Source: Pigmentiphaga aceris
GTDB lineage: Bacteria; Pseudomonadota; Gammaproteobacteria; Burkholderiales; Burkholderiaceae_B
DNA: 64,000 bases
Reading direction: 5' to 3'
NCBI RefSeq assembly: GCF_008119665.1
Contig: NZ_CP043046.1
Coordinates: 1,922,001-1,986,000 of the forward strand
How positions within the stretch are numbered: position 1 is the first letter of the stretch; the number at the start of each line of letters is the position of its first letter. Position numbers and translations under genes: made by a program. Positions 26,537-39,299 of the stretch are shown here, one piece after another. The notes under the pieces were generated by a model that did not search any database, had not been told where the DNA came from, and worked only from the letters and a program-made list of their open reading frames with translations.

Positions 26537-27376
26537 TCAAAGTTCGGTGCGCAGTCGCCAAATCTCGGGGAACAGCACTACGTCCAGCATCTTGCGCAGA
26601 TAGCTCACGCCCCCGGTGCCACCAGTGCCGCGCTTGAAGCCGATCACGCGTTCCACGGTCGTCACGTGGCGAAAGCGCCAGAGCCGGAAAGCGTCTTCGA
26701 TGTCAGTGAGCTTTTCGCCTAACTGGTACAGGTCCCAGTGTTGCTTCGGGTTGCGGTAGACGGCGAGCCAGGCTTGCTCCACCACGTCGCTCGCCACATA
26801 AGGCTGTGTCCAGTCGCGTTCTACGTATTCCGACGGTATGGCCAGGCCGCTGCGCGCCAGCAGGCGCAGCGCTTCATCGTAGAGCGATGGGGCACAGTAG
26901 GCCGCTTCTACCTGTGCGAGCAGATCGGCACGGTGCGCGTGGGGCTTGAGCATCGCCGCGTTCTTGTTGCCCAGCGAGAACTCGATGCAACGGTACTGCG
27001 CGCTCTGGAAGCCGCTCGAACTCGCGAGGTAAGGCCGCATTGCGCTGTACTCGGGCGGCGTCATGGTCGATAGCACCGTCCATGCGTTCACGAGCTGTTC
27101 CATGATGCGCGTTACGCGGGACAGCATCTTGAAGGCATCGGGCAACTGCTCGGTGGCGATGCAGTGCGTGGCTGCGGTCAGCTCGTGCAGCATGAGCTTC
27201 ATCCACAGCTCGCTGGTTTGATGCTGCACGATGAAAAGCATCTCGTCGTGCGCCGGTGATAGCGGATGCTGCGCGTTCAGGATCTGGTCCAGGTGCAGGT
27301 AGTCGCCGTAGCTCATCGACTGGCTGAAGTCGAGTTGCGCCTTTTCGTCCTGAACAATTTTCTCGGTCTGATGCAT
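26537..27376 (-). CDS. kynA: Tryptophan 2,3-dioxygenase
   Basis: This heme enzyme opens the tryptophan indole ring to N-formylkynurenine. The 279-residue protein has the conserved blocks [31 protein letters not shown] (heme pocket histidine), [14 protein letters not shown], and the C-terminal [20 protein letters not shown] that contains the proximal heme His region. Length matches the family. It is the last gene of kynB-kynU-kynA and starts one base after the kynU stop. Confidence 0.95.
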
Positions 27377-27377
27377 C

Positions 27378-28694
27378 TCAGGTCACCGCGTTTTTCTGAT
27401 TGAACTCGGGGCGCCGCCACTCTTCTTTTTCCAGCACTTGCACGAAGTGTTCGACCGAATGCCAGACGTCCTCGAAGCTCAGGTACAGCGGCGTGAAACC
27501 GAAGCGCAGGATATGCGGCGTCTGCGCGTCGCCAGCGCGGAAGTCACCAATTACCCCGCGGGCAATGAGCGCCTGCACGATGGCGTACGCCGCATTGCCC
27601 TGCGCTTCGGCGGCATCGGCCATCGCCAGGCACACCTGCGATCCGCGCTGGCCGTGTTCACGTGGCGTGACGAGCGTGAAGCGGCCAGGGCAGCGTGCCT
27701 CGATCAGGGCGATGAAGGCGTCGGTCAGCGCGAGCGACTTGATGCGCAGCGCTGACATCGGCTCGCCGTCGGCGTTGAAGGGCTCAGCGGCCAGCACGGT
27801 GTCGAGTCCGCATTCAAGCGCCGACAGGCTGATGATCGGTTGCGTGCCGCACAGGTAGCGCGCCGCGCCCGGTGCGGGCTGGTAATGCGGCGTGAACGCG
27901 AAAGGTGCGGCGTGGCCAAACCAGCCAGACAGCGGCTGCTCGAAGCGGCTCGCATGGCGCGCGTTCACCCACACGAAGGCAGGCGCGCCGGGGCCACCGT
28001 TCAAATACTTGTAGCCACAGCCGATCGCGAAGTCGGCATTGCATGCGTTGAGCTTGACCGGTACTGCGCCCGCGCTGTGCGCCAGGTCCCACACGGTGAG
28101 TGCACCGGCGGCGTGTGCCGCTTCTGTCAACGCGGCCATGTCGTGCATGACGCCGGTGCGGTAGTTGACGTGCGTAAGCATCAGCACCGCAACCTCAGGC
28201 GTGAGCGCGGCGGGAATATCCTCGACGCGTTCCACCAGCTTAAGCGTGAAGCCGCGTTCGCGACAGAGCGATTCGGCGATGTACAGGTCGGTCGGGAAGT
28301 TGCTGCGCTCGCTCACGACGGTGCGGCGTTGCGGCTCGCCGCTGTCGATCGCCTGGCTCATGGCGGCGAACAGCACTTTGTAGAGGTTGATCGAGGTGCT
28401 GTCGGTACACATCACTTCGTCCGGCGCGGCACCGATCAGCCGAGCCAACTTGTTGCCCAGGCGCTGCGGCATGTCGATCCAACTGGCGGTGTTCCAGGAG
28501 CGGATCAGGCCATTGCCCCATTCCTGCGCCACCACGTCGGCGACGCGCGCGGGGGTGGCGGTCGGCATCACGCCGAGCGAGTTGCCGTCGAGGTAGATCA
28601 CGCCGTCGGGCAGGGTGAACAGGTCGCGCAGTTCGCGCAGCGGGTCGGCGTGATCGAGAGCGCGGCAATCGTCGAGGGTCATGTCACTGTCCAT
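27378..28694 (-). CDS. kynU: Kynureninase
   Basis: This PLP enzyme splits kynurenine into anthranilate and alanine. The protein has 438 residues from the ATG at 28694; the ATG at 28682 ([14 protein letters not shown]) has a better spaced GGA and is an equally likely start. Signatures are [30 protein letters not shown], the PLP Asp region in [13 protein letters not shown], and the Schiff-base lysine in [14 protein letters not shown]. It is the middle gene of kynBUA. The pathway as coded ends at anthranilate; no anthranilate degradation genes are in the window. Confidence 0.95.
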
Positions 28695-28753
28695 GAGTTT
28701 GATGCAGGTTGGCGGGGCACATCGTGGAACCGGCTTTGTCGGGCCATTGGTTA

Positions 28754-28800
28754 TTCCCCCGAGAGGGGGCAGCGCAATACGAAGCGCTAGTACGGGGGAA
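28754..28800. repeat. Nested GC-rich palindromic repeat between kynB and kynU
   Basis: The stretch TTCCCCC-GAGA-GGGGG (28754-28769) is followed by AGCGC and GCGCT around AATACGAA, and then by GGGGGAA (28794-28800). CCCCC can pair with either G run. From memory, such motifs (C5, G5 and AGCGC/GCGCT around ACGAA) are frequent between genes in Comamonadaceae; I see no other copy in this window. Confidence 0.5.
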
Positions 28801-28803
28801 AGT

Positions 28804-29430
28804 TCATAGACTGCGCAGCACTGCGCGAACGGGGGAAGCGTCGGCGCTCACCAGCTTCAGCGGCAGTGCGATGAGTTCGTAGTCGCCTTCGGGCACATCG
28901 TCGAGCACGAGGTTTTCGAGCACGCGCAGGTTCATGCGGCGGATGACCTGGTGGCTGTCGAGCGTCTTGCTGTCGGCTGGGTCGATGCTGGCGGTGTCGA
29001 TGCCGATCAGCGTCACGCCGAGCGCGGCAAGGCGTTCGATAGTGGCCGGTGCGTAGGCGGCAAGGGCACCGTCCCATTCGACAGGTGCGCGCTGGTAGGT
29101 ACGCACCAGCACGCGCGACGGGAGATCTTTGATGGCATGCGCGATGTGCGCCCACTCGATCAACGGCCCACACGCGATGGCGTGAATCACGCGGCAAGGG
29201 CCGAGGAAGGGCGTGAGGTCGATGTCGCCGATCGTGGTGCCGTCGGGGGCGTAGTGCAGGGGCGCATCGGCGTGCGCACCGACGTGCGGCGACAGCGTGA
29301 TCTCGCTGACGTTCACGGGGCAACCCGGGCCTATGCTTGCGGCCCAGCGCTGCTGGTAGGGCGTGTCGCCGGGAAAGACCGGAGAGCCTTCGTGCACAGG
29401 TGGGGAGATATCCCAGATTCGTTTTGTCAT
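28804..29430 (-). CDS. kynB: Kynurenine formamidase (arylformamidase, cyclase family)
   Basis: The enzyme hydrolyses N-formylkynurenine to kynurenine and formate. The 208-residue protein starts [25 protein letters not shown] and carries the metal-binding motif [12 protein letters not shown], which matches H-x-G-x-H-x-D-x-P-x-H of bacterial Kyn[16 protein letters not shown] is also conserved. It is the first gene of kynB-kynU-kynA, and 109-121 bases with a palindromic repeat separate it from kynU. The promoter should lie in 29431-29610; no Lrp-type kynR regulator is adjacent, unlike in some relatives. Confidence 0.94.
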
Positions 29431-29616: not shown

Positions 29617-29622
29617 TAATAT
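29617..29622 (+). promoter_or_regulatory. Putative -10 box for the TPP-riboswitch operon
   Basis: TAATAT lies 8 bases before the first paired base of the riboswitch, so transcription from about 29629 would begin right at the aptamer. No good -35 box is seen at the usual distance. Confidence 0.5.
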
Positions 29623-29629
29623 CGTGGTC

Positions 29630-29702
29630 GCTCCGGGGTGCACATCAGTGCTGAGATCCAGACCCGTGAACTTGAACCGGTTAATCCCGGCGGAAGAAGA
29701 GC
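29630..29702 (+). ncRNA. TPP (thiamine pyrophosphate) riboswitch, THI element
   Basis: All conserved THI-box parts are present in order. P1 is closed by GCTC (29630-29633) and GAGC (29699-29702). P2 pairs GGGT (29636-29639) with ACCC (29662-29665). P3 is GCAC-ATCA-GTGC (29640-29651). CTGAGA (29651-29656) recognises the pyrimidine ring. GAACTTGA follows, and P5 is CCGG-TTAATC-CCGG (29677-29690) with the UAAU loop and GCG that contact the pyrophosphate. It directly precedes a LuxE-LuxC-ABC-SDR operon, which should therefore be repressed when TPP is plentiful. Confidence 0.93.
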
Positions 29703-29718
29703 ATTCACCTTGATGTGA

Positions 29719-29744
29719 CGGCACGCCCAAATAGGAGCGTGCCG
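29719..29744 (+). promoter_or_regulatory. Hairpin in the riboswitch expression platform
   Basis: CGGCACGC and GCGTGCCG form an 8-bp perfect stem with a 10-base loop, 16 bases after the aptamer and about 35 bases before the ribosome binding site. There is no following T run, so it is not a simple intrinsic terminator. It may belong to a switch acting on translation or on Rho access. Confidence 0.5.
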
Positions 29745-29791
29745 CATGGGGAGCCTTCGGAGCATCGTTGCACAGCTCAGGAAGGACGTTC

Positions 29792-30874
29792 ATGGATAAG
29801 CTCGCCCCGCTGGTCGCGGACATTCTCGACTTCATTGCGGCGGACGGCTGCTCGGACGATCAGTTCGATGCCCTCGCGCTTCGCCTGTTTGCCCATCAAT
29901 TTGCCGCCAATGCGCCGTATCGCAGCTTCTGCCAGCAGCGTGGGGTGACCACGCGCAAGGTCAACACCTGGCGGGATATTCCGGCGGTGCCTATCGATGC
30001 GTTCAAGGCAACGGAATTGCGCTGTGCGCCGCCGTCTGAGCAGGAACGCGTTTTCATGACCAGCGGCACGACACGTGCCGATACGCGCGGACGTCACTTT
30101 CATCCGCTGCTGGATGTCTACGACCTTTCGATGATCCGCAATTTTGCGCAGCGCTTCATGCGTGGCGACGCGCGAATGCCCATGGGCGTGTTGTTCCCCG
30201 ACGAAGTGGCCATGCCGAATTCATCGCTCGCGCATTATCTGGCGCTGGCGAAGTCGACATTCGGGTCGGACGACAGCCGCTATTTCATGACGCCGCAGGG
30301 CATTGACCTGCCCGCGCTGTGGCAGACCCTGGACGCTGCCGTTGCGCGCGGTGAGCCGTATGCGCTGCTGGGCGCGAGCTACAGCATTGTCCACGTGCTG
30401 GATGCCTTGCAGGCGCAGGGCAAGCGTTTCCAGCTGCCTGCGGGAAGCCGCATTCTGGACACCGGCGGCTACAAGGGGCAGTCACGCGAGTTGCCGCTTG
30501 AGACCTTCTATGCTTCGCTGTCGGACCTGCTGGGCGTGCCGCGTACGCACTGCATCAACATGTACGGTATGACTGAACTGAGCACGCAGTTCTATGACGA
30601 CGGCAATGCCGAGGTGCCGTCGGTCAAGTCTGGGCCGCACTGGATTCGTTCGCGCCTGGTAGACCCGGTTTCCGGGCAGGACGTAGCCCCCGGCGAACGC
30701 GGCATTCTGGTGCATTGCGACCTGGCCAATTTCAATTCGGTCACGACCATCCTGACCGAAGATGTCGGTGTGGCGCGCGGGGCAGGGTTCCTGCTGCTGG
30801 GACGTGCCGAAGGCGTGGACGCCAAGGGATGTTCGCTGGCGGTGGAAGAGTTCCTGCGGGCAACTTCGGCATGA
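29792..30874 (+). CDS. LuxE-like acyl-protein synthetase (carboxylate activating)
   Basis: The 360-residue protein belongs to the LuxE/acyl-protein synthetase group of the adenylate-forming superfamily. The AMP-binding loop FMTSGTTRADTRG is at about 88, INMYGMTELSTQFYDD is the adenylation core, and GCS with Cys347 near the C-terminus (DAKGCSLAVEEF) matches the acyl-accepting cysteine of LuxE. Known LuxE uses ATP to form an acyl-AMP and transfers the acyl group to its own cysteine, for reduction by LuxC. AGGAAGG lies 6 bases before the ATG. It is the first gene behind a TPP riboswitch and overlaps the LuxC gene by 4 bases. The acid substrate is unknown; a thiamine-related carboxylate is inferred. 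Confidence 0.85.
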   Translation: MDKLAPLVADILDFIAADGCSDDQFDALALRLFAHQFAANAPYRSFCQQRGVTTRKVNTWRDIPAVPIDAFKATELRCAPPSEQERVFMTSGTTRADTRGRHFHPLLDVYDLSMIRNFAQRFMRGDARMPMGVLFPDEVAMPNSSLAHYLALAKSTFGSDDSRYFMTPQGIDLPALWQTLDAAVARGEPYALLGASYSIVHVLDALQAQGKRFQLPAGSRILDTGGYKGQSRELPLETFYASLSDLLGVPRTHCINMYGMTELSTQFYDDGNAEVPSVKSGPHWIRSRLVDPVSGQDVAPGERGILVHCDLANFNSVTTILTEDVGVARGAGFLLLGRAEGVDAKGCSLAVEEFLRATSA

Positions 30875-32337
30875 CGACGCACACGGTCCAGGCCGGGTAC
30901 CTGCCCGGACTGACGGCGGATGAAGTCGCATGGCAGCAGTTGAGCTTCTCGCAACATGGCACGCGCGTGGACGTGGCCGTGCCCATGCTGACCGCGTTGC
31001 AGATGAATGCGCTGGCCGAGCGCGTGCGCCGCGCCAGTGCCTTGCATCTGAAGACCATGAGCGTGTCGGACATCATTGGCGTGATCGACCGCGCAATGGC
31101 CCGTCTGCTGGATCGCGACGATCCGTTCCGGCAACAGGCAGACCAGTGGTTGCCGGTGGTCACGGGCTTCGACGCCGACATGGTGCGCCTGGGGCTGACA
31201 GCATTTTTCAAGACGTTCCGCGCACCCCAGTTGCACCGTTTCGTGGCCGAGGATTTTGCGAATCCCAAGGTGCTGGATGGTTTTCAGCCGACGCCCAAGG
31301 GCGGGGCGGTTCGTGCCTTCGGCCCGGACTTGCTGGTGCACAGCTGGGCCGGCAATGTCCCGGCGCTGGCCTTATGGAGCTTTGTCTGCGGCCTGTTGGT
31401 GAAGGCTGGCAATATCGGCAAATTGCCCAGCGCCGAGCCGCTTTTCGCCGGGTGGTTCGCGCGTTTGCTGGCCGAGGTGCATCCGCCTTGGGTGGAGTGC
31501 ATGGCGGTGGTGTGGTGGCGCGGTGCGGGCGACGACGGCGCGGCCGAGTTGTATGCGCAGGCCGACACCGTGGTGGCCTATGGCGGCAATGATTCGCTGG
31601 ACGCCATTCGCAAGCGCTTGCCGGTGACCACCCGCTTTTTGCCTCACGGCCACAAGCTAGGCGTCGGCCTGATTGGCGTGTCGGCGCTCGACACTTTGAA
31701 AGCACCGCCACTGGCGCGCCTGGCCGCCTGGGACGTGATGCGTTATGACCAGCAAGGGTGTTATTCGCCCCACGTCTTTTACGTGGAACGGGGCGGCGCG
31801 GTTACGCCACGTGCCTTTGCCGATTACCTGGCAGCGGAATTGGCCAACTTGCATCGGCGCTTCCCGCGTCGGGCACAGGGTCTTGATGATGCCGCTGCGG
31901 TGGCCAAGTGGCAGCAGGCATTCGAGTGGAAGTTGCTTGCCGCCGAGCACAGGCAGGACGCCTTGATCGGCGGGCCGACCACTGCCTGGCAAGTGGCATA
32001 CCGCGACCAGCTTCAGCCGTTGGCACCCACGGCGCTTCAACGCAGCATTCAGGTGGTGGCGGTTGACGCGCTGGAATCGGTGATGCCCGTCATCGGCGCA
32101 CAGCGCCGGTATCTTCAGACTGCCGGGGTCGCCGCGTCGCCAGAAGCGCTTTATCGCTTGGCCGATATGCTGGGCGCGGCCGGTGTGACGCGGATCAGTG
32201 CCATCGGCGCGATGAGTGCGCCGGAAGCAGGCTGGCACCACGATGGCCGCTTCAACCTGCTGGACCTGGTGCGCATGACCGAAATCGAGAACTCAGCCGA
32301 AATGGCTGCGCAGCCGCTGGCGCGATATGCAGATTGA
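30871..32337 (+). CDS. LuxC-like acyl reductase
   Basis: The 488-residue protein is a LuxC family NADPH-dependent acyl reductase with an aldehyde-dehydrogenase-like fold. The catalytic cysteine is Cys297 in DQQGCYSPHVFYVERGG. VHSWAGNVPALALWSF and VVAYGGNDSLDAIR fit the nucleotide-binding and core regions. LuxC receives an acyl group from LuxE and releases it as an aldehyde. The ATG overlaps the luxE-like stop (ATGA), strong evidence for a stoichiometric pair. LuxD, LuxA and LuxB are absent, so this is not bioluminescence. Under TPP control the aldehyde is likely a thiamine-pathway intermediate. Confidence 0.87.
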   Translation: MTTHTVQAGYLPGLTADEVAWQQLSFSQHGTRVDVAVPMLTALQMNALAERVRRASALHLKTMSVSDIIGVIDRAMARLLDRDDPFRQQADQWLPVVTGFDADMVRLGLTAFFKTFRAPQLHRFVAEDFANPKVLDGFQPTPKGGAVRAFGPDLLVHSWAGNVPALALWSFVCGLLVKAGNIGKLPSAEPLFAGWFARLLAEVHPPWVECMAVVWWRGAGDDGAAELYAQADTVVAYGGNDSLDAIRKRLPVTTRFLPHGHKLGVGLIGVSALDTLKAPPLARLAAWDVMRYDQQGCYSPHVFYVERGGAVTPRAFADYLAAELANLHRRFPRRAQGLDDAAAVAKWQQAFEWKLLAAEHRQDALIGGPTTAWQVAYRDQLQPLAPTALQRSIQVVAVDALESVMPVIGAQRRYLQTAGVAASPEALYRLADMLGAAGVTRISAIGAMSAPEAGWHHDGRFNLLDLVRMTEIENSAEMAAQPLARYAD

Positions 32338-32367
32338 ATCTCACGCATCCCCGCAGGCGTTCTTGTC

Positions 32368-33147
32368 ATGAGTTTCATGGACATCCAGAACGTGGTGTTC
32401 ACCTACCCGGGCAGACCGCCCGTGGTGGACGGCATCGACTGGCAGATCGAGGCGGGTGAGATCCACTGCCTGGTGGGACGCAGCGGCTGTGGCAAGACCA
32501 CGCTGCTGAAGTTGGCGGCAGGGTTGCTGCGTCCGCAATCGGGCCGGATTCTGCTGCGTGACGGCGAGCTGGTGTCGCCCGGGCCACAGATCGGGTTCAT
32601 GTTCCAGGCCCCCGTGCTGCTGGAGTGGCATCGGGTCATCGACAACGTGTTGCTGCCGGTGTCCTTGCAGCGTCGGCCAGATGCCAGGGACCGAGCGCGC
32701 GCGCTTGCGCTGCTGGACACGCTGGGCTTGGCTGCTCATGCTCAGCATCATCCTCGTGCCTTGTCCGGCGGTCAGCAAAGCCGGGTGGCACTGGCGCGCG
32801 CGCTCATTCTCGACCCCGCCTTGCTGCTGTTGGACGAACCGTTCGCCGCCCTTGACGCCATTACCCGCTCAGACCTGCAAGACGATTTGCTGGCTATGTG
32901 CCGACAGCGTGGCACCACAGTACTGTTCGTGACGCACGACATTGCGGAGGCCGTTTACTTGGGCGATCGGATTGCCGTGATGCATGGCGGGCGCATCGTC
33001 GATGCCTTGCAAGTAGGCCTACCCACGCCCCGAACCCAGACGCTGCGCCACGGCGTGCCCTTCAATCAATATTGCGCGCGTGTACACGCTGCGATGGATC
33101 AGGCTCGTCATGCGGGCGCGCAGACTACGACGGTGGGGGCAGCATGA
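32368..33147 (+). CDS. ABC transporter ATP-binding protein (ThiZ/SsuB/TauB-like)
   Basis: The 259-residue ATPase has Walker A GRSGCGKTT, Q loop FMFQAPVLLEWHRV, signature ALSGGQQSRVALARAL, Walker B LLLLDEPFAALDA and the H loop FVTHDIAEAVYL. It belongs to the nitrate/taurine/THI5 importer class. It begins 30 bases after the luxC-like gene and its stop overlaps the permease start (ATGA). A second ATG three codons in (MDIQNVVFTY) is an alternative start. Linkage to a THI5/NMT1-type binding protein and a TPP riboswitch points to uptake of a thiamine precursor or breakdown product. Confidence 0.9.
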   Translation: MSFMDIQNVVFTYPGRPPVVDGIDWQIEAGEIHCLVGRSGCGKTTLLKLAAGLLRPQSGRILLRDGELVSPGPQIGFMFQAPVLLEWHRVIDNVLLPVSLQRRPDARDRARALALLDTLGLAAHAQHHPRALSGGQQSRVALARALILDPALLLLDEPFAALDAITRSDLQDDLLAMCRQRGTTVLFVTHDIAEAVYLGDRIAVMHGGRIVDALQVGLPTPRTQTLRHGVPFNQYCARVHAAMDQARHAGAQTTTVGAA

Positions 33148-33911
33148 CGGCGAGTTCGCGTCAGGCCCGCGTGCTGGCCTGTGTCGTGTTCCTGGTGCTG
33201 GTCTGCGCCTGGGAACTGGTCGCGCGCCGATCGGGATTGTCTGCGCTGGTGTTGCCCGCGCCTTCAGCCATTGCCGCGAGCTTGTGGACGCAATTGAGCA
33301 ACGGCTATTTCTGGCCACATCTGCGCGCCACCTTGTTCACCTTGGTGTCTGGCCTGGCGCTTGGCAGTGTCGTCGGGTTGTTGATGGGCATTGCCCTGGC
33401 GGAATCCTCCTTGCTGGAACGGGTGTTCAGGCCCTATGTGATCGTCAGCCAGGTGGTGCCCAAGCTGGCGCTGGCACCGCTGTTCGTGTTGTGGTTCGGC
33501 TTCGGGGCCACATCTGTGGTGCTGATCACTGCGCTGATCTGTTTTTTCCCCTTGATGGAAAACACGCTGACGGCCTTGAAGCAGGTGGATGCACAGCGTT
33601 TGCAGCTGTTCCAGATGCTGGGCGCTACCCGCATGCAGACCCTGCTGCGCCTGAAACTTCCCACCGGCATGCCGGGCATTCTGGCGGGGCTGCGCGTGGC
33701 CGTGGTGCTGGCTTTGGTGGGTGCCGTGGTGGGCGAATTCATTGGTGCCAGCCAAGGCCTGGGTGCCGTCATCATTGCGTCGCAGGGCATGATGGACACC
33801 TCGCTGATGTTCGCCGCGCTGATCCTCATCGCCGTGATTGGTCTACTTTTCTATCAAGCCACGCTGTTGCTTGAGCGCGTGCTGTTGCGTTCCTATACCG
33901 ACCGTCCCTGA
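33144..33911 (+). CDS. ABC transporter permease (ThiX/SsuC-like)
   Basis: The 255-residue inner membrane permease has about six helices. The cytoplasmic EAA-type loop reads LFQMLGATRMQTLLRLKLPTGMPGILAGLRVAVVLA, where the Glu of EAA is replaced by a Met-Leu-Gly-Ala variant common in this class. AWELVARRSGLSALVLPAP at the N-terminus is typical of nitrate/taurine/pyrimidine-precursor permeases. The start at 33144 overlaps the ATPase stop; a longer frame from 32898 is antisense-free but inside the ATPase gene and rejected. Two bases separate its stop (33911) from the binding-protein start. Confidence 0.9.
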   Translation: MTASSRQARVLACVVFLVLVCAWELVARRSGLSALVLPAPSAIAASLWTQLSNGYFWPHLRATLFTLVSGLALGSVVGLLMGIALAESSLLERVFRPYVIVSQVVPKLALAPLFVLWFGFGATSVVLITALICFFPLMENTLTALKQVDAQRLQLFQMLGATRMQTLLRLKLPTGMPGILAGLRVAVVLALVGAVVGEFIGASQGLGAVIIASQGMMDTSLMFAALILIAVIGLLFYQATLLLERVLLRSYTDRP

Positions 33912-33912
33912 C

Positions 33913-34944
33913 ATGACCTCAGATACCTTGCACCGTCTGCTTTCCCGCCGCCGCTTCCTTGCCACGACCGCCGCCATGGCGGCCCTTGCGGCACCGCCGT
34001 TCGCCGCCTTCGGGCAGAACCCGCCGACCGCTCCGACGCTCGGCAAGGTCACCGTGGCGGGCTGGAGCAAGCCCATCAGCGAGATCACCAATCTGCTGGT
34101 CGAGCCGGAAAAAGGGTTCTTCAAGGCGCAGGGGGTGGAACTGGCTTACCTGCCGGGCGCGGGCGGTGGCGATGCCATTCGCAATCTGCTGAGCGGTCAG
34201 GCCGACGTGGCGTTCACCGATCCGGGGTCGTTCTTCATGGCGCTGGACAAGGGTGAAAAGCTCGTCGCCATCTACGACATCTACCCGCGCAATGTCTTCA
34301 ACGTGGTGTCGCTGAAGTCGGCCAACATCACACGGCCGGCGGATCTCAAGGGTAAGAAGATCGGCGTCTACAGCCTGTCCAGCGGCACGCGGCAGAACCT
34401 GTTGGTGATGTTGCACCAGGCCGGTCTGAAAGAGTCTGATGTCAGCATCGTGGTGACTGGCTTGCTCAACTTCGCACCGCTGTTGCAAGGCCAGGTCGAT
34501 GCCACGGCGGCAACCGATACCGGGCTGGTGGTTGGCCAACGAAAGGGCATTGGCGAAGTCAACGTGATGCCGGTCAGCGACTATCTGAACGTGTCCAGCG
34601 ACTTGTTCGTGGTGCGCGAATCGGTCTATCGGGAAAAGAAGGAATTGCTGAAGGCGTTCCTCAAAGGCTATCGCGACAGCGCGGCCTGGATGATCGCCCA
34701 GCCAGATGAAGCCGCAACCCTGGCAGGCAAGTACGCCATCGACGGCACCAACCGCGACATCAATCTTGAGGTCATCCGCTTGCGCAACGCATCGTCATTG
34801 TCGGCTGGCGGGGTGGGCAGCCTGGGTGCCTTCGATCTGGATGCCTTGCAGAAGGGCGCTGACGCGTTCCGCGCCTTGGGCCTGATCACGCGTCAGATCA
34901 AGGTGTCTGACGTGGTGGACACCAGCTTGTTGCCAGCCCGATAA
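33913..34944 (+). CDS. ABC transporter substrate-binding protein, NMT1/THI5-like
   Basis: The 343-residue periplasmic protein has a twin-arginine-like signal (LLSRRRFLATTAAMAALAAP, cleaved after FAAFGQ). The mature part is an NMT1/THI5-like fold: VTVAGWSKPISEITNLLVEPEKGFF, YLPGAGGGDAIRNLLSGQADVAF, and DLKGKKIGVYSLSSGTRQN. ThiY and THI5-like proteins of this family bind hydroxymethylpyrimidine-type compounds, but the family also binds nitrate and sulfonates, so family alone does not name the ligand. The TPP riboswitch makes a thiamine-related ligand the best guess. It is followed 11 bases later by the dehydrogenase. Confidence 0.88.
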   Translation: MTSDTLHRLLSRRRFLATTAAMAALAAPPFAAFGQNPPTAPTLGKVTVAGWSKPISEITNLLVEPEKGFFKAQGVELAYLPGAGGGDAIRNLLSGQADVAFTDPGSFFMALDKGEKLVAIYDIYPRNVFNVVSLKSANITRPADLKGKKIGVYSLSSGTRQNLLVMLHQAGLKESDVSIVVTGLLNFAPLLQGQVDATAATDTGLVVGQRKGIGEVNVMPVSDYLNVSSDLFVVRESVYREKKELLKAFLKGYRDSAAWMIAQPDEAATLAGKYAIDGTNRDINLEVIRLRNASSLSAGGVGSLGAFDLDALQKGADAFRALGLITRQIKVSDVVDTSLLPAR

Positions 34945-34955
34945 AAGGCCGCCAC

Positions 34956-35723
34956 ATGAAATTCCAGGACAAGGTAGTGCTGGTGACTGGCGCAAGCCGT
35001 GGCATCGGGGCGGCAATCGCGCTTGCGTTCGCGCGCGAGGGGGCCTCGGTGGTGGTCAACTACCTGTCGAACGACACTGCGGCTGCCGAGGTGGTTGCCG
35101 CATGTCAGGCAGCAGGCGGTGACGCCTGGGCGGTCAAGGCCGATGTCGGGTCGGACGATGCGGTGCGCACCATGATCGATGGCATCGTGAGTGAGTTCGG
35201 GCACATCGACATCGTGGTGAACAACGCCTTCAGTCCGTACTTGTTTGACCCAAAGAACAGAACCCGCTTCGACGACTTGAACTGGCACGACTACCAGTCG
35301 CAGTTCGACGGCACTGTGGGCGCGACTTTCCGGGTGTGCCAGGCCGTGCTGCCGATTTTCCGCAAACGGGCACAAGGCAGCATCGTCAATATCGTCAGCA
35401 ACCTGGTTGAACACCCGGTGGTGGCGTATCACGACTACACGACTGCCAAGGCCGGGCTGGTGGCCTTCAGCCGCAATCTGGCAAGCGAGCTTGGCCCGCT
35501 TGGCATCCGCGTCAACTGCGTGGCACCGGGCCTGGTGTATCCCACCCAGGCCAGTCAGGCCACCCAGGAATCGTTCCGTGAATCGCTGATGGCGGCCACG
35601 CCCTTGCGGCGCATTGCGCGGCCGGAAGACGTGGCGGGGCCGGTGCTGTTCCTGGCGTCGGACTGGGCCGGTTTCATGACCGGGCAGGTCTTGTTCGTGG
35701 ACGGCGGACTGGTGATGAAATAA
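34956..35723 (+). CDS. Short-chain dehydrogenase/reductase (SDR), last gene of TPP operon
   Basis: The 255-residue classical SDR has the cofactor motif TGASRGIG, the NNAF segment, the catalytic Tyr161-x-x-x-Lys165 (DYTTAK), and the C-terminal FLASDWAGFMTGQVLFVDGG. It resembles FabG-type reductases, but the substrate is not defined by sequence. It begins 11 bases after the binding-protein gene in the TPP-riboswitch operon, so it is a natural candidate for reducing the aldehyde made by the LuxC-like enzyme to an alcohol. Fatty acid synthesis is an unlikely role in this setting. Confidence 0.88.
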   Translation: MKFQDKVVLVTGASRGIGAAIALAFAREGASVVVNYLSNDTAAAEVVAACQAAGGDAWAVKADVGSDDAVRTMIDGIVSEFGHIDIVVNNAFSPYLFDPKNRTRFDDLNWHDYQSQFDGTVGATFRVCQAVLPIFRKRAQGSIVNIVSNLVEHPVVAYHDYTTAKAGLVAFSRNLASELGPLGIRVNCVAPGLVYPTQASQATQESFRESLMAATPLRRIARPEDVAGPVLFLASDWAGFMTGQVLFVDGGLVMK

Positions 35724-35762: not shown

Positions 35763-36536
35763 TTACTTTACCGGCGCGCGCAACATGATGCCCGCATTTT
35801 CCAAAGCACTACGCAGGCCCTGAGCAAAGGCCAGTGCACCCGGCTGGTCGCCATGCACACACAAAGTATCGGCTTGCAGCGGCACTTCCTTGCCCGACAC
35901 GGCACGCACATAACCGTGTTGCACCATCGCCAGCACCTGGTCGATGGACTGCTGCAGGTCGGTAATCATGGCCCCCGGCTGGCGGCGCGAGGTCAGCGAA
36001 CCATCGTCCTGGTAGCTGCGGTCGGCGAACACTTCGCTGGCCACGCGCAGGCCCATGTCGCGGGCCACATCCACCGTCACGCTGCCCGCCAGCGCAAACA
36101 CCACCAAGGACGCATCCACATCGTGCACGGCGCGGCAGATGGCTTTCGACAGGCCTGCATCGCGTGCGGCCATGTTGTAGAGCGCACCGTGCGCTTTCAC
36201 ATGGCGCAGCGGCACACCGGCGGCATCCGTGAAGCCCTTCAGCGCGCCGATCTGATACACCACCATTTCGTAGGCCTCGTCGGCTGAAACGGCCATTTCA
36301 CGGCGTCCGAAGCCTTGCAGGTCGGGCAGACTGGGGTGCGCGCCAATCGACACGTCGCGGGCAATGGCAGCTTTCACGGTTGCCGCCATCGAGCGCGGAT
36401 CGCCTGCGTGGAAACCGCAGGCGATGTTAGCCGAGGTGACCGAGCCCAGCAGCCCCAGATCGTCGCCGGCCTGGTAGATGCTGAAGCCTTCGCCCATGTC
36501 ACAGTTGAGATCGAGTTCGCGCATGTTCATGTCCAT
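35763..36536 (-). CDS. pxpA: 5-oxoprolinase subunit A (LamB/YcsF family)
   Basis: PxpA works with PxpB and PxpC to cleave 5-oxoproline, a glutamine and glutathione by-product, using ATP. The protein (257 residues from 36536) has the family core LDLNCDMGEGFSIYQ, SANIACGFHAGDP, IGAHPSLPDLQGFGRR and VKAHGALYNMA. Three ATGs (36536, 36530, 36524) lie close together. The last has GGA at the best distance, giving MRELDLNCD. No pxpB or pxpC is adjacent, which is unusual but not rare. It is convergent with the SDR gene and divergent from the diguanylate cyclase. Confidence 0.92.
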   Translation of the reverse strand: MDMNMRELDLNCDMGEGFSIYQAGDDLGLLGSVTSANIACGFHAGDPRSMAATVKAAIARDVSIGAHPSLPDLQGFGRREMAVSADEAYEMVVYQIGALKGFTDAAGVPLRHVKAHGALYNMAARDAGLSKAICRAVHDVDASLVVFALAGSVTVDVARDMGLRVASEVFADRSYQDDGSLTSRRQPGAMITDLQQSIDQVLAMVQHGYVRAVSGKEVPLQADTLCVHGDQPGALAFAQGLRSALENAGIMLRAPVK

Positions 36537-36659
36537 AATTGGTGGGAGAGGGGCGCGGCGTGATGACCAGGCCAGCGCGCAGGGTGACAGGATATCGCCC
36601 TCGCAGGCTTGCGTCAGTACGCAAGTTCGTGTCTTCATTCAGGATTGGTATAGTCGGGC

Positions 36660-38177
36660 TTGAACCAGCCGTCGCCGACGGTTGCGCTTTATGTCGGGGT
36701 CATTATTTTCTCCACGCCAGGTGGTTTGCTGCGAGCACTCAATGTCCTGACACTCCTGATCACGATGGGGCTGTTGGCCATCGCCTTCGCCGCGCTGTGG
36801 ATCGATCGGGAAAAGACCTGGGAGGGCGCGGCAAACAGTGCACGCAACGTGCTTGCCTTGCTGGAAGGCGATATCTCTCGCACGATTCGCGGCTATGACC
36901 TGTCGCTCAGTGGCGTGATCGACGGCATGAGCGCGCCGGGCATCGACACCTTGTCGCCCGACATGCGCCAGCGTGTGCTCTTCGATGGGGCCGCTGCAGC
37001 CGAGCACCTGGGTTCCTTGCTGGTGATCGATGCACTGGGCAACGTGGTGCACGATTCCGCATCGACGCGCCCGCGTCAGGGAAATTTTGCCGATCGCGAT
37101 TACTTCAGGGCACATCGTGACCGGGCCGATGTGGGCTTGTTCATCAGCGCCCCGTTTCGCAGCCGCCTGCGCGGCGGTGACCCCAGCATTGCCCTCAGCC
37201 GCCGCCTGTCTGCACCGGACGGCAGTTTCGCGGGCGTGGTCAGCGGCACCTTGCGGCTGAGTTATTTTCGCGACCTGTTCCAGCGCCTGAAACTGGGCAC
37301 CGATGACTCCATCACCTTGTTGCGTGACGATGGCATCGTGTTGATGCGCGACCCCTACGCCGAAGGCATTCCGGGCACCAACCTGCGCGCCAGCCCGGTC
37401 ATCAGCCGTTTTCTCGATCGTGGTGAATCCGGGTTTGTGGGTAAGGCTACGCTTGATGGCGTCAGCCGTTACTACAACTTCGCGCGCCTGCAGGGGCTGC
37501 CGCTGTTCATGAACGTCAACATCTCGCCAGACGGTTTCCTGAAACCTTGGCGACAGCGCTCGTGGGTCATCAGCATCACCACCTTGCTGTTGTGCGCGGC
37601 GGTGATGACACTGACACTGCTGTTTCAGCGCGAACTGCGCAGACGTCAGCAGGTAGAGCGGAAACTGGAATTGCTGGCGCAGACCGACGGCTTGACGGGG
37701 CTGGTCAACCGCCGTGCATTCGATCTGGCCTTGCAGACCGAGTTTGACGACGCCCGCCGCACGGGCGCACTGATGTCCTTGCTGTTTGTCGACGCCGATC
37801 GCTTCAAATACTTCAATGATCGATACGGGCACCAGGCCGGTGACGAGGTGCTGCGGCGTATTGGTGATGTGCTGCGTGAGCATGCGCGACGGCCTCGCGA
37901 TGTGGCGGCGCGTTATGGCGGGGAAGAGTTCGTGTTGCTGTTGCCCGCAACCGGGGCTGCCCAGGCGGTCGAGATCGCAGAGCGCCTCCGCACCGCCGTC
38001 ATGGCTTTGAGCTTGCCCCACGATGGCTTGCCGGGCGGTGTTTGTACGGTGAGTGTCGGTGTTGCAAGTGGTGTATCGGCAGGGTCAGAAGATCGTGCCG
38101 CCATGCTGATGCGCGCCGACGCAGCGCTTTACCGTGCCAAGCAGGCGGGTAGAAACCGGACGGAATTGGCAGCTTGA
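36660..38177 (+). CDS. Membrane diguanylate cyclase with periplasmic dCache-like sensor
   Basis: The product makes cyclic di-GMP from two GTP. From a TTG at 36660 it is 505 residues: a membrane helix (about 27-48), a periplasmic sensor of PDC/dCache type (about 55-295, with NFADRDYFRAHRD and GVVSGTLRLSYF), a second helix (about 300-322), and a GGDEF domain with active site GGEEF at 420-424. An I site RPRD precedes it by five residues, so product inhibition is expected. The start is uncertain: other non-ATG codons just upstream of the first helix are possible. The signal is unknown. It is divergent from pxpA. Confidence 0.9.
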   Translation: MNQPSPTVALYVGVIIFSTPGGLLRALNVLTLLITMGLLAIAFAALWIDREKTWEGAANSARNVLALLEGDISRTIRGYDLSLSGVIDGMSAPGIDTLSPDMRQRVLFDGAAAAEHLGSLLVIDALGNVVHDSASTRPRQGNFADRDYFRAHRDRADVGLFISAPFRSRLRGGDPSIALSRRLSAPDGSFAGVVSGTLRLSYFRDLFQRLKLGTDDSITLLRDDGIVLMRDPYAEGIPGTNLRASPVISRFLDRGESGFVGKATLDGVSRYYNFARLQGLPLFMNVNISPDGFLKPWRQRSWVISITTLLLCAAVMTLTLLFQRELRRRQQVERKLELLAQTDGLTGLVNRRAFDLALQTEFDDARRTGALMSLLFVDADRFKYFNDRYGHQAGDEVLRRIGDVLREHARRPRDVAARYGGEEFVLLLPATGAAQAVEIAERLRTAVMALSLPHDGLPGGVCTVSVGVASGVSAGSEDRAAMLMRADAALYRAKQAGRNRTELAA

Positions 38178-38252
38178 TCGCGGCGTGGCGATGCTGGTTT
38201 TCGCTGGTGTCAGTGAATGATTCAGTTATCGATCTTGCTCATCAACGCTCAA

Positions 38253-39161
38253 TCAGCTGGCGTTTTTCAGCCGATCATTTTTCAACCGTTCGATGAACCA
38301 GCGCCCGGCCGGTCCGGGCAGCGCATCTTTGCGATGTACTGCAGACATCGCAATTGCCAATGGGTGCTGCCGGTAGGCTTCCAGCTCGATGCGTACCAGC
38401 AGGCCGCTATCCACATCGGCCTGCACCATGGCTTGTGGCATGTGGCCCCAGCCAAAGCCGGCGCGCAGAAATGCATGTTTTGCACCCAGGTCTGCCAGCC
38501 GCCAGGTCAGCGGTGAAAACACGGCAAAAGTGCTGCCGCTGGTCAGGTTTGTGCGATCGGTGAGTACGAGTTGAACGTGGCGTTCCAGGTCGCGGTCACG
38601 CACTGCCCCGGTGTGTTCCGTCAACGGGTGGCCGGGTGCCACCACGGTGATCATCGGTACATCAAGCAGTCGTTCGGTGTCGATGCTGTCAGGCACCACC
38701 GGCATGGAACCGATCACCCCGATACGACATACGCCGTCCAGCACCGGCTGTACGACGGCTCCGAGCGCTTCGACATAAAGCCGCAGGGGCGTATTGGGAA
38801 ATGCACCGCGAAAGGCACCCACCGCTTCGGTCAGTGAGGCCATCGGGTACATCACGTCCACCACCACCGACAGCTCGGGTTCCAGCCCTTCAGACAGCGT
38901 TCGTGCGCGGGCCTTGAAGGTATCCATGCCGTTGACCACCGTGCGCGCCTCGCTCAGCAATGCCTGGCCTTGTTCCGTCAGACGGGGGTAGCGCGCGCTG
39001 CGGTCGAACAGCTGCGTGTTGATCTGGCCTTCCAAGTTGGCCAGCGTCTGGCTGATGACGGACTGCGCCCGGTTCAGCTTGCGGCCTGCCGCCGAAAAAC
39101 TACCTTCATCTGCCGCCGCAATGAAGGTGCGCAACTGGTCCATGGAAACGCCGTCAAGCAT
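38253..39161 (-). CDS. LysR family regulator divergent from doxX
   Basis: This 302-residue LysR regulator has an N-terminal winged helix (MDQLRTFIAAADEGSFSAAGRKLNRAQSVISQTLANLE, shown here by its first residues MDQLRTF at about position 7) and a C-terminal effector-binding domain. The ATG at 39161 has a GGA 7 bases upstream; an ATG at 39143 directly before DQLRTF is the main alternative. It is divergent from the DoxX gene across 138 bases, the usual arrangement for a LysR regulator and its target. The effector is unknown. Confidence 0.9.
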   Translation of the reverse strand: MLDGVSMDQLRTFIAAADEGSFSAAGRKLNRAQSVISQTLANLEGQINTQLFDRSARYPRLTEQGQALLSEARTVVNGMDTFKARARTLSEGLEPELSVVVDVMYPMASLTEAVGAFRGAFPNTPLRLYVEALGAVVQPVLDGVCRIGVIGSMPVVPDSIDTERLLDVPMITVVAPGHPLTEHTGAVRDRDLERHVQLVLTDRTNLTSGSTFAVFSPLTWRLADLGAKHAFLRAGFGWGHMPQAMVQADVDSGLLVRIELEAYRQHPLAIAMSAVHRKDALPGPAGRWFIERLKNDRLKNAS

Positions 39162-39299
39162 GTGTCGGTCCAGGCATATATCGGTCCTGTAGATGGATTC
39201 CATCGAAAAATATAGGCTTCCAGCATGGATGTCCAGTGCCTAAGATTCGTTCCATCAACTCGATTCAGCGATCCAAGCGATCCAACCAAGGCAGACATC

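What the first reader, a model, noticed from the sequence alone, without database searches (positions are those of the whole stretch)
29617..35723. TPP-riboswitch operon combining LuxE/LuxC-like carboxylate reduction, a THI5-type ABC importer and an SDR
A textbook TPP riboswitch (29630-29702) heads six tightly spaced genes: LuxE-like synthetase, LuxC-like reductase (4-base overlap), ATPase, permease (4-base overlap), NMT1/THI5-type binding protein and SDR. LuxE keeps its C-terminal acyl-accepting Cys347 and LuxC its Cys297, but luxA, luxB and luxD are absent, so this is not light production. Seen: the gene order, motifs and riboswitch. Known: LuxE activates a carboxylic acid and LuxC reduces it to an aldehyde; THI5-type binding proteins can bind pyrimidine precursors. 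Inferred: a thiamine salvage route that imports an oxidised thiamine relative (for example the pyrimidine 5-carboxylate, or thiamine/thiazole acetic acid) and reduces acid to aldehyde to alcohol, giving back a usable precursor. I know of no described pathway with this set.
Basis: partly seen in the sequence, partly recalled or inferred. Interest (0 to 1): 0.92.

Follow-up and report, generated by a model that had tools for sequence, protein, structure and literature searches.

The report
Vitamin B1 pyrimidine-acid salvage operon
A set of genes controlled by a vitamin B1 sensor appears to let bacteria take up an oxidised fragment of vitamin B1 and turn it back into a usable building block, using enzymes related to those that make the fuel for bacterial light.

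Summary
A TPP riboswitch (29624-29715, 56.5 bits) heads luxE-luxC-ATPase-permease-SBP-SDR; both catalytic cysteines are invariant in the relatives aligned. The six-gene order recurs in betaproteobacteria, Bacillaceae, Azospirillum and a Desulfosporosinus MAG. A TPP aptamer precedes the module in 44 of 44, 19 of 20 and 9 of 10 chromosomal loci examined and in 6 of 6 plasmid loci. Leaders look like OFF switches. thi genes sit beside it in 22 of 80 loci; 13 read TPP-thiD-luxE, some ending thiO-thiS-thiG, with no thiC. In one 200-genome family sample, 7 of 11 ThiC-minus/ThiG-plus genomes carry it against 0 of 51 lacking both. In the window's own family it occurs only with ThiC (33 of 33), so there it supplements. 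Lactobacillus plasmids and a Niallia megaplasmid have a nucleobase-permease relative instead of the ABC importer. The SBP's closest solved structure binds formylaminopyrimidine. Best reading: uptake of a pyrimidine acid, probably 2-methyl-4-amino-5-pyrimidinecarboxylate (a known thiamine metabolite), ATP-activated by LuxE, reduced by LuxC to the aldehyde and by the SDR to HMP for ThiD. The pyrimidine side is well supported; the exact acid and every catalytic step are inferred.

The parts
29624..29715 (+). TPP riboswitch aptamer (THI element)
   Evidence: cmscan RF00059, 56.5 bits, E 2e-8; same place found in genome search
29754..29763 (+). CCTTCGGAGC element, putative anti-SD arm of the riboswitch expression platform: CCUUC can pair with the SD GGAAGG (29780-29785), and CGGAGC with GCUCCG in the 5' strand of the aptamer's P1
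   Evidence: read from sequence; an element of this kind in 32 of 32 betaproteobacterial leaders tested, window included; pairing and switching inferred
29792..30874 (+). LuxE-like acid-activating synthetase (adenylation plus C-terminal acyl-accepting Cys347)
   Evidence: PF04443; Cys347 and most of the MTSGTT loop invariant in 30 of 30; aligns with solved LuxE 7xc6_E
30871..32337 (+). LuxC-like acyl-thioester reductase (Cys297)
   Evidence: PF05893; Cys297 invariant in 31 of 31; aligns with 7xc6_A
32368..33147 (+). ABC importer ATPase
   Evidence: PF00005
33144..33911 (+). ABC importer permease
   Evidence: PF00528
33913..34944 (+). NMT1/THI5-type substrate-binding protein
34956..35723 (+). 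SDR oxidoreductase (Tyr161, Lys165), proposed aldehyde to alcohol step
   Evidence: PF13561; Y161 and K165 invariant in 27 of 27

Best explanation
A TPP-repressed salvage operon for the pyrimidine half of thiamine. When TPP is low the riboswitch lets the genes be made. [quoted passage not shown] The LuxE-like enzyme activates the carboxylate with ATP and carries the acyl group on Cys347. LuxC receives it on Cys297 and reduces it with NAD(P)H to the 5-aldehyde. [quoted passage not shown] In the window's genome, which has thiC and thiG, the route supplements synthesis; in some relatives it may stand in for the missing ThiC. Shown computationally: riboswitch, gene order, residues, thi linkage and gene-loss pattern. 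Inferred: ligand, direction and every catalytic step.
For: TPP aptamer upstream of the module in 44 of 44 genomes (mapped; 22 of the 44 over the gathering score, the other 22 at 46.7-54.0 bits), 19 of 20 further genomes, 9 of 10 further loci and 6 of 6 plasmid loci. OFF-type platforms: anti-SD-like element in 32 of 32 betaproteobacterial leaders, terminator in 8 of 11 Bacillota leaders. thi genes beside the operon in 22 of 80 loci, thiD in 21 (names checked); 13 loci read TPP-thiD-luxE. In 49 operon genomes plus the window's, ThiC is missing in 15 of 50; of these 15, 11 keep full-length ThiG, 1 has it in pieces, 3 lack it. In a 200-genome family sample the operon is in 7 of 11 ThiC-/ThiG+, 14 of 136 ThiC+/ThiG+, 0 of 2 ThiC+/ThiG-, 0 of 51 ThiC-/ThiG-. 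ThiC state changes at least 7 times on the LuxE tree. In Lactiplantibacillus and Levilactobacillus plasmids an NCS2-family permease replaces the ABC importer, and Niallia taxi has TPP-TPP-ThiW-NCS2 permease-luxE-luxC-SDR. The SBP model is closest to FAMP-binding 3ix1 and thiamin-bound 4nmy. The LuxE model is closest to aryl-acid adenylating PaaK. The acid is a known thiamine metabolite in rat urine (Neal and Pearson 1964, title seen in a reference list).
Against: In the window's own family the operon is in 33 of 200 genomes, all 33 with ThiC, and in none of the 22 without ThiC, although 16 of the 20 of these that I checked have ThiG: no general ThiC replacement. One genome (G032) has ThiC but no full ThiG, though thiM and thiW lie beside its operon. 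Three operon genomes lack both, two of them MAGs. Six of the 12 genomes that lack only ThiC are MAGs, where incompleteness could mimic loss. Pantoea, L073 and L077 have luxE-luxC-SDR without a linked importer. G117 has the operon without a TPP aptamer. The two alphaproteobacterial leaders tested showed neither platform element. The best profile of the NCS2 permeases is xanthine permease, below its cut-off, so a purine cargo is not excluded for them. Aryl-acid similarity of the LuxE model may be a trait of the LuxE fold in general. No enzyme or ligand data.
Confidence: 0.7

Rival explanations
1. Same operon logic, but the acid is the whole vitamin oxidised on its side chain (thiamine acetic acid), reduced straight back to thiamine.
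For: TPP control; a solved thiamin-bound SBP, 4nmy, is the second-best structural match of the SBP. Thiamine acetic acid as a known product is recalled, not from a call.
Against: ThiD and, in some loci, the thiazole genes are co-linear with the operon, and ThiG is mostly kept where ThiC is lost; a thiamine-returning route would need neither. A nucleobase-permease relative in lactobacilli and Niallia does not suit a thiamine-sized cation (inference).
Confidence: 0.08
2. The acid is on the thiazole side (4-methylthiazole-5-acetic acid), reduced to hydroxyethylthiazole for ThiM.
For: thiM next to the operon in 4 of 80 loci and thiW in 3, all Bacillaceae; one genome is ThiC-plus and ThiG-minus.
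Against: Among 50 genomes, losing only ThiC is seen 12 times (1 with ThiG in pieces), losing only ThiG once. In the family sample the operon is in 0 of 2 ThiC+/ThiG- genomes. ThiM is beside the operon in 4 of 80 loci, ThiD in 21. Where ThiW is present it could already bring in thiazole. The SBP resembles pyrimidine binders.
Confidence: 0.06
3. The module makes or remodels HMP from some other acid formed inside the cell (a ThiC-independent route), the importer serving a different molecule.
For: Pantoea and two alphaproteobacterial loci have luxE-luxC-SDR with no linked importer.
Against: ABC importer genes follow in 69 of 80 loci, and 9 of the other 11 end at the contig end within or just after luxC. 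An unlinked or unspecific importer explains the exceptions equally well.
Confidence: 0.08
4. The enzymes run in the other direction and oxidise or break down thiamine pyrimidines as nutrient or detoxification.
For: SDRs and LuxC-type dehydrogenases are reversible in principle (established knowledge).
Against: Switch anatomy indicates expression when TPP is scarce. LuxE spends ATP to activate an acid. Some genomes without ThiC keep the operon next to thiD, thiE or thiG.
Confidence: 0.03

Closest known systems
LuxC-LuxE fatty acid reductase of luminous bacteria (PDB 7xc6)
   Same: Same two protein families with both catalytic cysteines aligned; same proposed chemistry of ATP activation, thioester transfer and NADPH reduction.
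   Different: About 23% identity to a lux-reporter LuxE; far below the NCBIfam cut-offs for long-chain enzymes; no luxA, luxB or luxD in the operon; TPP riboswitch, small-molecule importer and SDR added. The TPP-linked LuxEs form one group apart from it.
ThiXYZ / YlmB / TenA salvage of formylaminopyrimidine (base-degraded thiamin)
   Same: TPP-controlled import of a thiamine pyrimidine by an NMT1/THI5-type ABC system, returning HMP to ThiD (described in PMC5627462, passages seen); SBP closest to 3ix1.
   Different: Chemistry is carboxylate reduction instead of deformylation and deamination; a different vitamer. Linkage to TenA or YlmB was not tested.
HMP uptake by ThiV-type carriers in ThiC-lacking bacteria
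   Same: Supplies the pyrimidine half where ThiC is missing (HMP auxotrophy and ThiV: PMC11452348, passages seen).
   Different: Those carriers take up HMP itself; here an oxidised relative is taken up and reduced.

Membership tests
TPP riboswitch (RF00059) | Covariance-model score over gathering threshold | tested here: met
   56.5 against 54.3 bits
TPP riboswitch (RF00059) | Binds TPP and represses | not testable with these tools
   OFF-type anatomy only
LuxE acyl-protein synthetase family (PF04443) | Pfam profile over cut-off and C-terminal acyl-accepting Cys | tested here: met
   71.4 against 24.9 bits; Cys347 aligned with 7xc6_E
Long-chain fatty acid LuxE and LuxC (NF052244, NF052251) | Equivalog score cut-offs | tested here: not met
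   68.2 against 550 and 84 against 750 bits
Long-chain fatty acid LuxE and LuxC (lux operon) | Linkage to luxD and luxAB | tested here: not met
   The operon holds none; genome-wide LuxD search had silent controls
LuxC reductase family (PF05893) | Pfam profile over cut-off and catalytic Cys | tested here: met
   271.6 against 21 bits; Cys297
ThiY / NMT1-THI5 pyrimidine-binding proteins | NMT1 profile and fold | tested here: met
   PF09084 175.9 bits; 3ix1 first of the PDB matches by Foldseek and by Z
ThiY / NMT1-THI5 pyrimidine-binding proteins | Binds a thiamine pyrimidine | not testable with these tools
   No ligand assay
TPP-controlled thiamine precursor salvage operon | TPP control and linkage to thi genes conserved among relatives | tested here: met
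   thi genes adjacent in 22 of 80 loci, not in the window itself
TPP-controlled thiamine precursor salvage operon | Supports growth on the precursor | not testable with these tools
   Needs growth test

The most novel reading that the evidence does not exclude
A carboxylated thiamine pyrimidine is an environmental B1 vitamer that is not being tracked, and a widely spread LuxE-LuxC-SDR pathway, with exchangeable importers (ABC, NCS2, or none linked) and carried on plasmids as small as 10 kb, recycles it to HMP by ATP-driven carboxylate reduction. In several lineages that have lost ThiC it stands in for it.
Probability: 0.6. Interest if true: 0.9.

Novelty: new variant of a known kind. Interest (0 to 1): 0.84.

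Why it matters
It would add a new reaction type (ATP-driven reduction of a heteroaromatic acid by LuxE/LuxC relatives) and probably a new vitamer to the vitamin B1 cycle. It could explain how some bacteria without ThiC but with an intact thiazole branch obtain the pyrimidine, so predictions of their needs from missing thiC would have to be revised. The claim is directly testable with one compound and one deletion strain.

Tried and rejected
Light production: rejected (no luxA, luxB or luxD in the operon; remote from lux LuxE). Long-chain fatty acid reduction: disfavoured by NCBIfam cut-offs and TPP control. The simple claim 'operon replaces ThiC' was tested as a bare ThiC-operon association and failed: 7 of 21 operon genomes lack ThiC against 55 of 179 without the operon in the family sample, and 0 of 22 ThiC-minus genomes have the operon in the window's family. 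Only the joint ThiC-minus/ThiG-plus pattern stands out, in one of the two families sampled. Genomes in these counts are related, so the Fisher values (6.7e-7 and 1.3e-5) are not independent-sample probabilities; (quick tree, 16 of 53 inner branches open) gives at least 7 changes of ThiC state for the set. The outputs do not list every genome without a match; I took those not listed as negatives, which fits their tallies. The four ThiC-minus/ThiG-plus genomes without the operon (G249, G272, G364, G402) have no strong LuxC match; their HMP source is unexplained. Other HMP routes (TenA, ThiV and the like) were not searched. My first ORF picker (longest ORF) failed in GC-rich loci and was replaced by a codon-usage one.

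Of 121 relatives the best 80 loci were kept. Of these 80, 44 were given to (plus the window's genome); the rest, largely short contigs and MAGs, were left out before counting. Ten of them (L026, L028, L030, L031, L033, L036, L043, L052, L055, L067) were later scanned for TPP: 9 of 10, L033 being cut off at the contig start. Of 32 plasmid records with a match, six TPP-bearing loci and two controls were opened. Literature: searches of the held library gave no paper in their listings on a TPP-controlled LuxE/LuxC operon or on reduction of a thiamine pyrimidine acid; the two tightest returned no paper at all. The founding TPP regulon survey (Rodionov 2002, recalled) is not held, so a mention there cannot be excluded. 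7xc6_E is not among the 50 rows shown for the LuxE model, although it is the only sequence match.
Full report
OBSERVATION. The TPP riboswitch is real: RF00059, 29624-29715 (+), 56.5 bits, the only gathering-level RNA family in the window. Six genes follow on the same strand: LuxE-like 29792-30874, LuxC-like 30871-32337, ABC ATPase 32368-33147, permease 33144-33911, NMT1/THI5-type binding protein 33913-34944, SDR 34956-35723. The genome (6.17 Mb, one contig) holds a second, weaker aptamer at 5314143-5314258 (48.9 bits), upstream of its only thiC at 5314829 and of thiG at 5316479. The host therefore keeps ThiC and ThiG, and these two aptamers are the only TPP matches found.

CONSERVATION. A scan of one genome per species with the LuxE protein found 121 relatives and kept 80 loci at 57-78% identity. 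The order luxE-luxC-ATPase-permease-SBP-SDR recurs in Alcaligenaceae, Comamonadaceae, Thauera, Bacillaceae and a Desulfosporosinus MAG. Plasmids add Azospirillum (full set), Pantoea (luxE-luxC-SDR) and small lactobacillus plasmids (permease-luxE-luxC-SDR). Forty-four of the 80 loci were given to a whole-genome TPP search; all 44 have an aptamer on the same strand 51-920 bases upstream of luxE (matched by coordinates, and in one genome, G026, two contigs fit). Of these, 22 exceed the gathering score and 22 lie at 46.7-54.0 bits. Ten of the remaining loci gave 9. Twenty further genomes from the family samples gave 19 of 20 (12 over the gathering score). The exception, G117, has all six genes and no aptamer in 18 kb. 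The six LuxE-bearing plasmid loci scanned have one, down to 39% LuxE identity, and a generic LuxE-family locus of Priestia (23%) has none. On a tree of 56 rows the TPP-linked LuxEs form one group away from the lux-reporter and Priestia LuxE.

REGULATION. In 32 of 32 betaproteobacterial leaders examined, window included, a CCTTCGGAGC-like element lies downstream of the aptamer. In the window it can pair with the SD or, alternatively, with the GCUCCG of the aptamer's 5' strand. In 8 of 11 Bacillota leaders a hairpin with a T run follows the aptamer; 2 alphaproteobacterial leaders showed neither. The patterns were written after seeing leaders, so the counts describe conservation and are not a blind test. 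Both layouts are usual for OFF switches, so expression is expected when TPP is low (inference).

WHICH HALF OF THIAMINE. thi genes lie beside the operon in 22 of 80 loci: ThiD 21, ThiE of either reference 15, ThiO 7, ThiG 6, ThiS 4, ThiM 4, ThiW 3. Family names were checked on examples by NCBIfam, where ThiO and the long-type ThiE are below their cut-offs; ThiG of L026 has no NCBIfam match and rests on PF05690. Thirteen loci (L026, L028, L030, L031, L032, L034, L036, L040, L041, L043, L052, L055, L067) read TPP-thiD-luxE. L026, L036 and L067 go on with thiO, thiS and thiG after the SDR, in L026 and L067 with thiE as well, and L032, L034, L040, L041 and L055 with thiE: thiamine operons with this module and no thiC. 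L026's genome has ThiC elsewhere; those of L032, L034, L036, L040, L041, L055 and L067 gave no ThiC. In the sample genome G429 the operon is followed by thiO, thiG and thiE (L099) and ThiC is missing. Of 50 operon genomes searched, 15 lack ThiC, 7 of them isolates by record title and 8 MAGs. ThiG is full-length in 11 of the 15, in pieces in 1, absent in 3. One genome (G032) lacks only ThiG; it has thiM and thiW at the operon.

BACKGROUND RATES. In 200 genomes of the family of Ramlibacter montanisoli (at least 95% completeness asked for) the operon is in 7 of 11 ThiC-/ThiG+, 14 of 136 ThiC+/ThiG+, 0 of 2 ThiC+/ThiG- and 0 of 51 ThiC-/ThiG- genomes (tabulated). ThiC loss alone is not associated with the operon (7 of 21 against 55 of 179). 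In 200 genomes of the window's own family the operon is in 33, all with ThiC, and in 0 of 22 without ThiC; 16 of the 20 of those that I checked have ThiG. The module thus looks like a ThiC bypass in some lineages and a supplement in others, and other HMP routes must exist. On the LuxE tree ThiC state changes at least 7 times.

CHEMISTRY. LuxE Cys347 is invariant in 30 of 30, LuxC Cys297 in 31 of 31, and the SDR Tyr161 and Lys165 in 27 of 27. The cysteines align with those of the solved LuxC and LuxE chains of 7xc6. The LuxE model (mean pLDDT 86.7) is closest to aryl-acid adenylating PaaK enzymes. [quoted passage not shown] only the title was seen, in the reference list of PMC7780320). The pyrimidine vitamers named in the passages that I saw of PMC5635689 and PMC10881298 are HMP, AmMP and FAMP, no pyrimidine acid.

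VERDICT. Confidence by layer (my judgement): TPP-controlled thiamine salvage about 0.95; pyrimidine side about 0.85; carboxylate reduction to HMP about 0.7. No substrate, enzyme activity or growth effect has been measured.

Noticed in passing
window 26537-29430 (-): Divergent kynurenine-type operon: tryptophan 2,3-dioxygenase, kynureninase and a putative cyclase (kynurenine formamidase type); it reads away from the riboswitch operon.
   Followed up: no
window 35763-39203: Downstream: LamB/YcsF family gene (-), a GGDEF protein with a Cache-like domain (+), and a LysR regulator (-); none of these three is a thi gene.
   Followed up: no
L105 1390-6321; L106 2947-7878: Two lactobacillus plasmids (10.3 kb and 21.2 kb) carry the same TPP riboswitch, NCS2 permease, LuxE, LuxC and SDR cassette, with the same protein accessions in both: a mobile vitamin-salvage cassette.
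   Followed up: partly
L109 5697-5993: Two tandem TPP aptamers (85.0 and 72.9 bits) ahead of ThiW, NCS2 permease, LuxE, LuxC and SDR on a Niallia taxi megaplasmid.
   Followed up: partly
L063, L076, L080: Alcaligenaceae MAGs with permease and SBP but no ATPase recognised in the operon.
   Followed up: no
L073, L077, L107: luxE-luxC-SDR under a TPP riboswitch without any linked importer in two alphaproteobacterial MAGs and Pantoea.
   Followed up: no
L133 8008-13807: G117 keeps all six genes at lower identity (LuxC 40%) but no TPP aptamer was found in 18 kb.
   Followed up: partly
L061; L110: LuxC appears as two ORFs in the Hylemonella MAG L061, and LuxE and LuxC are fragmented on the Pseudomonas silvicola plasmid: decaying copies or sequencing errors.
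   Followed up: no
G249, G272, G364, G402: ThiC-minus/ThiG-plus genomes without the operon and without a strong LuxC match: HMP source unexplained.
   Followed up: partly
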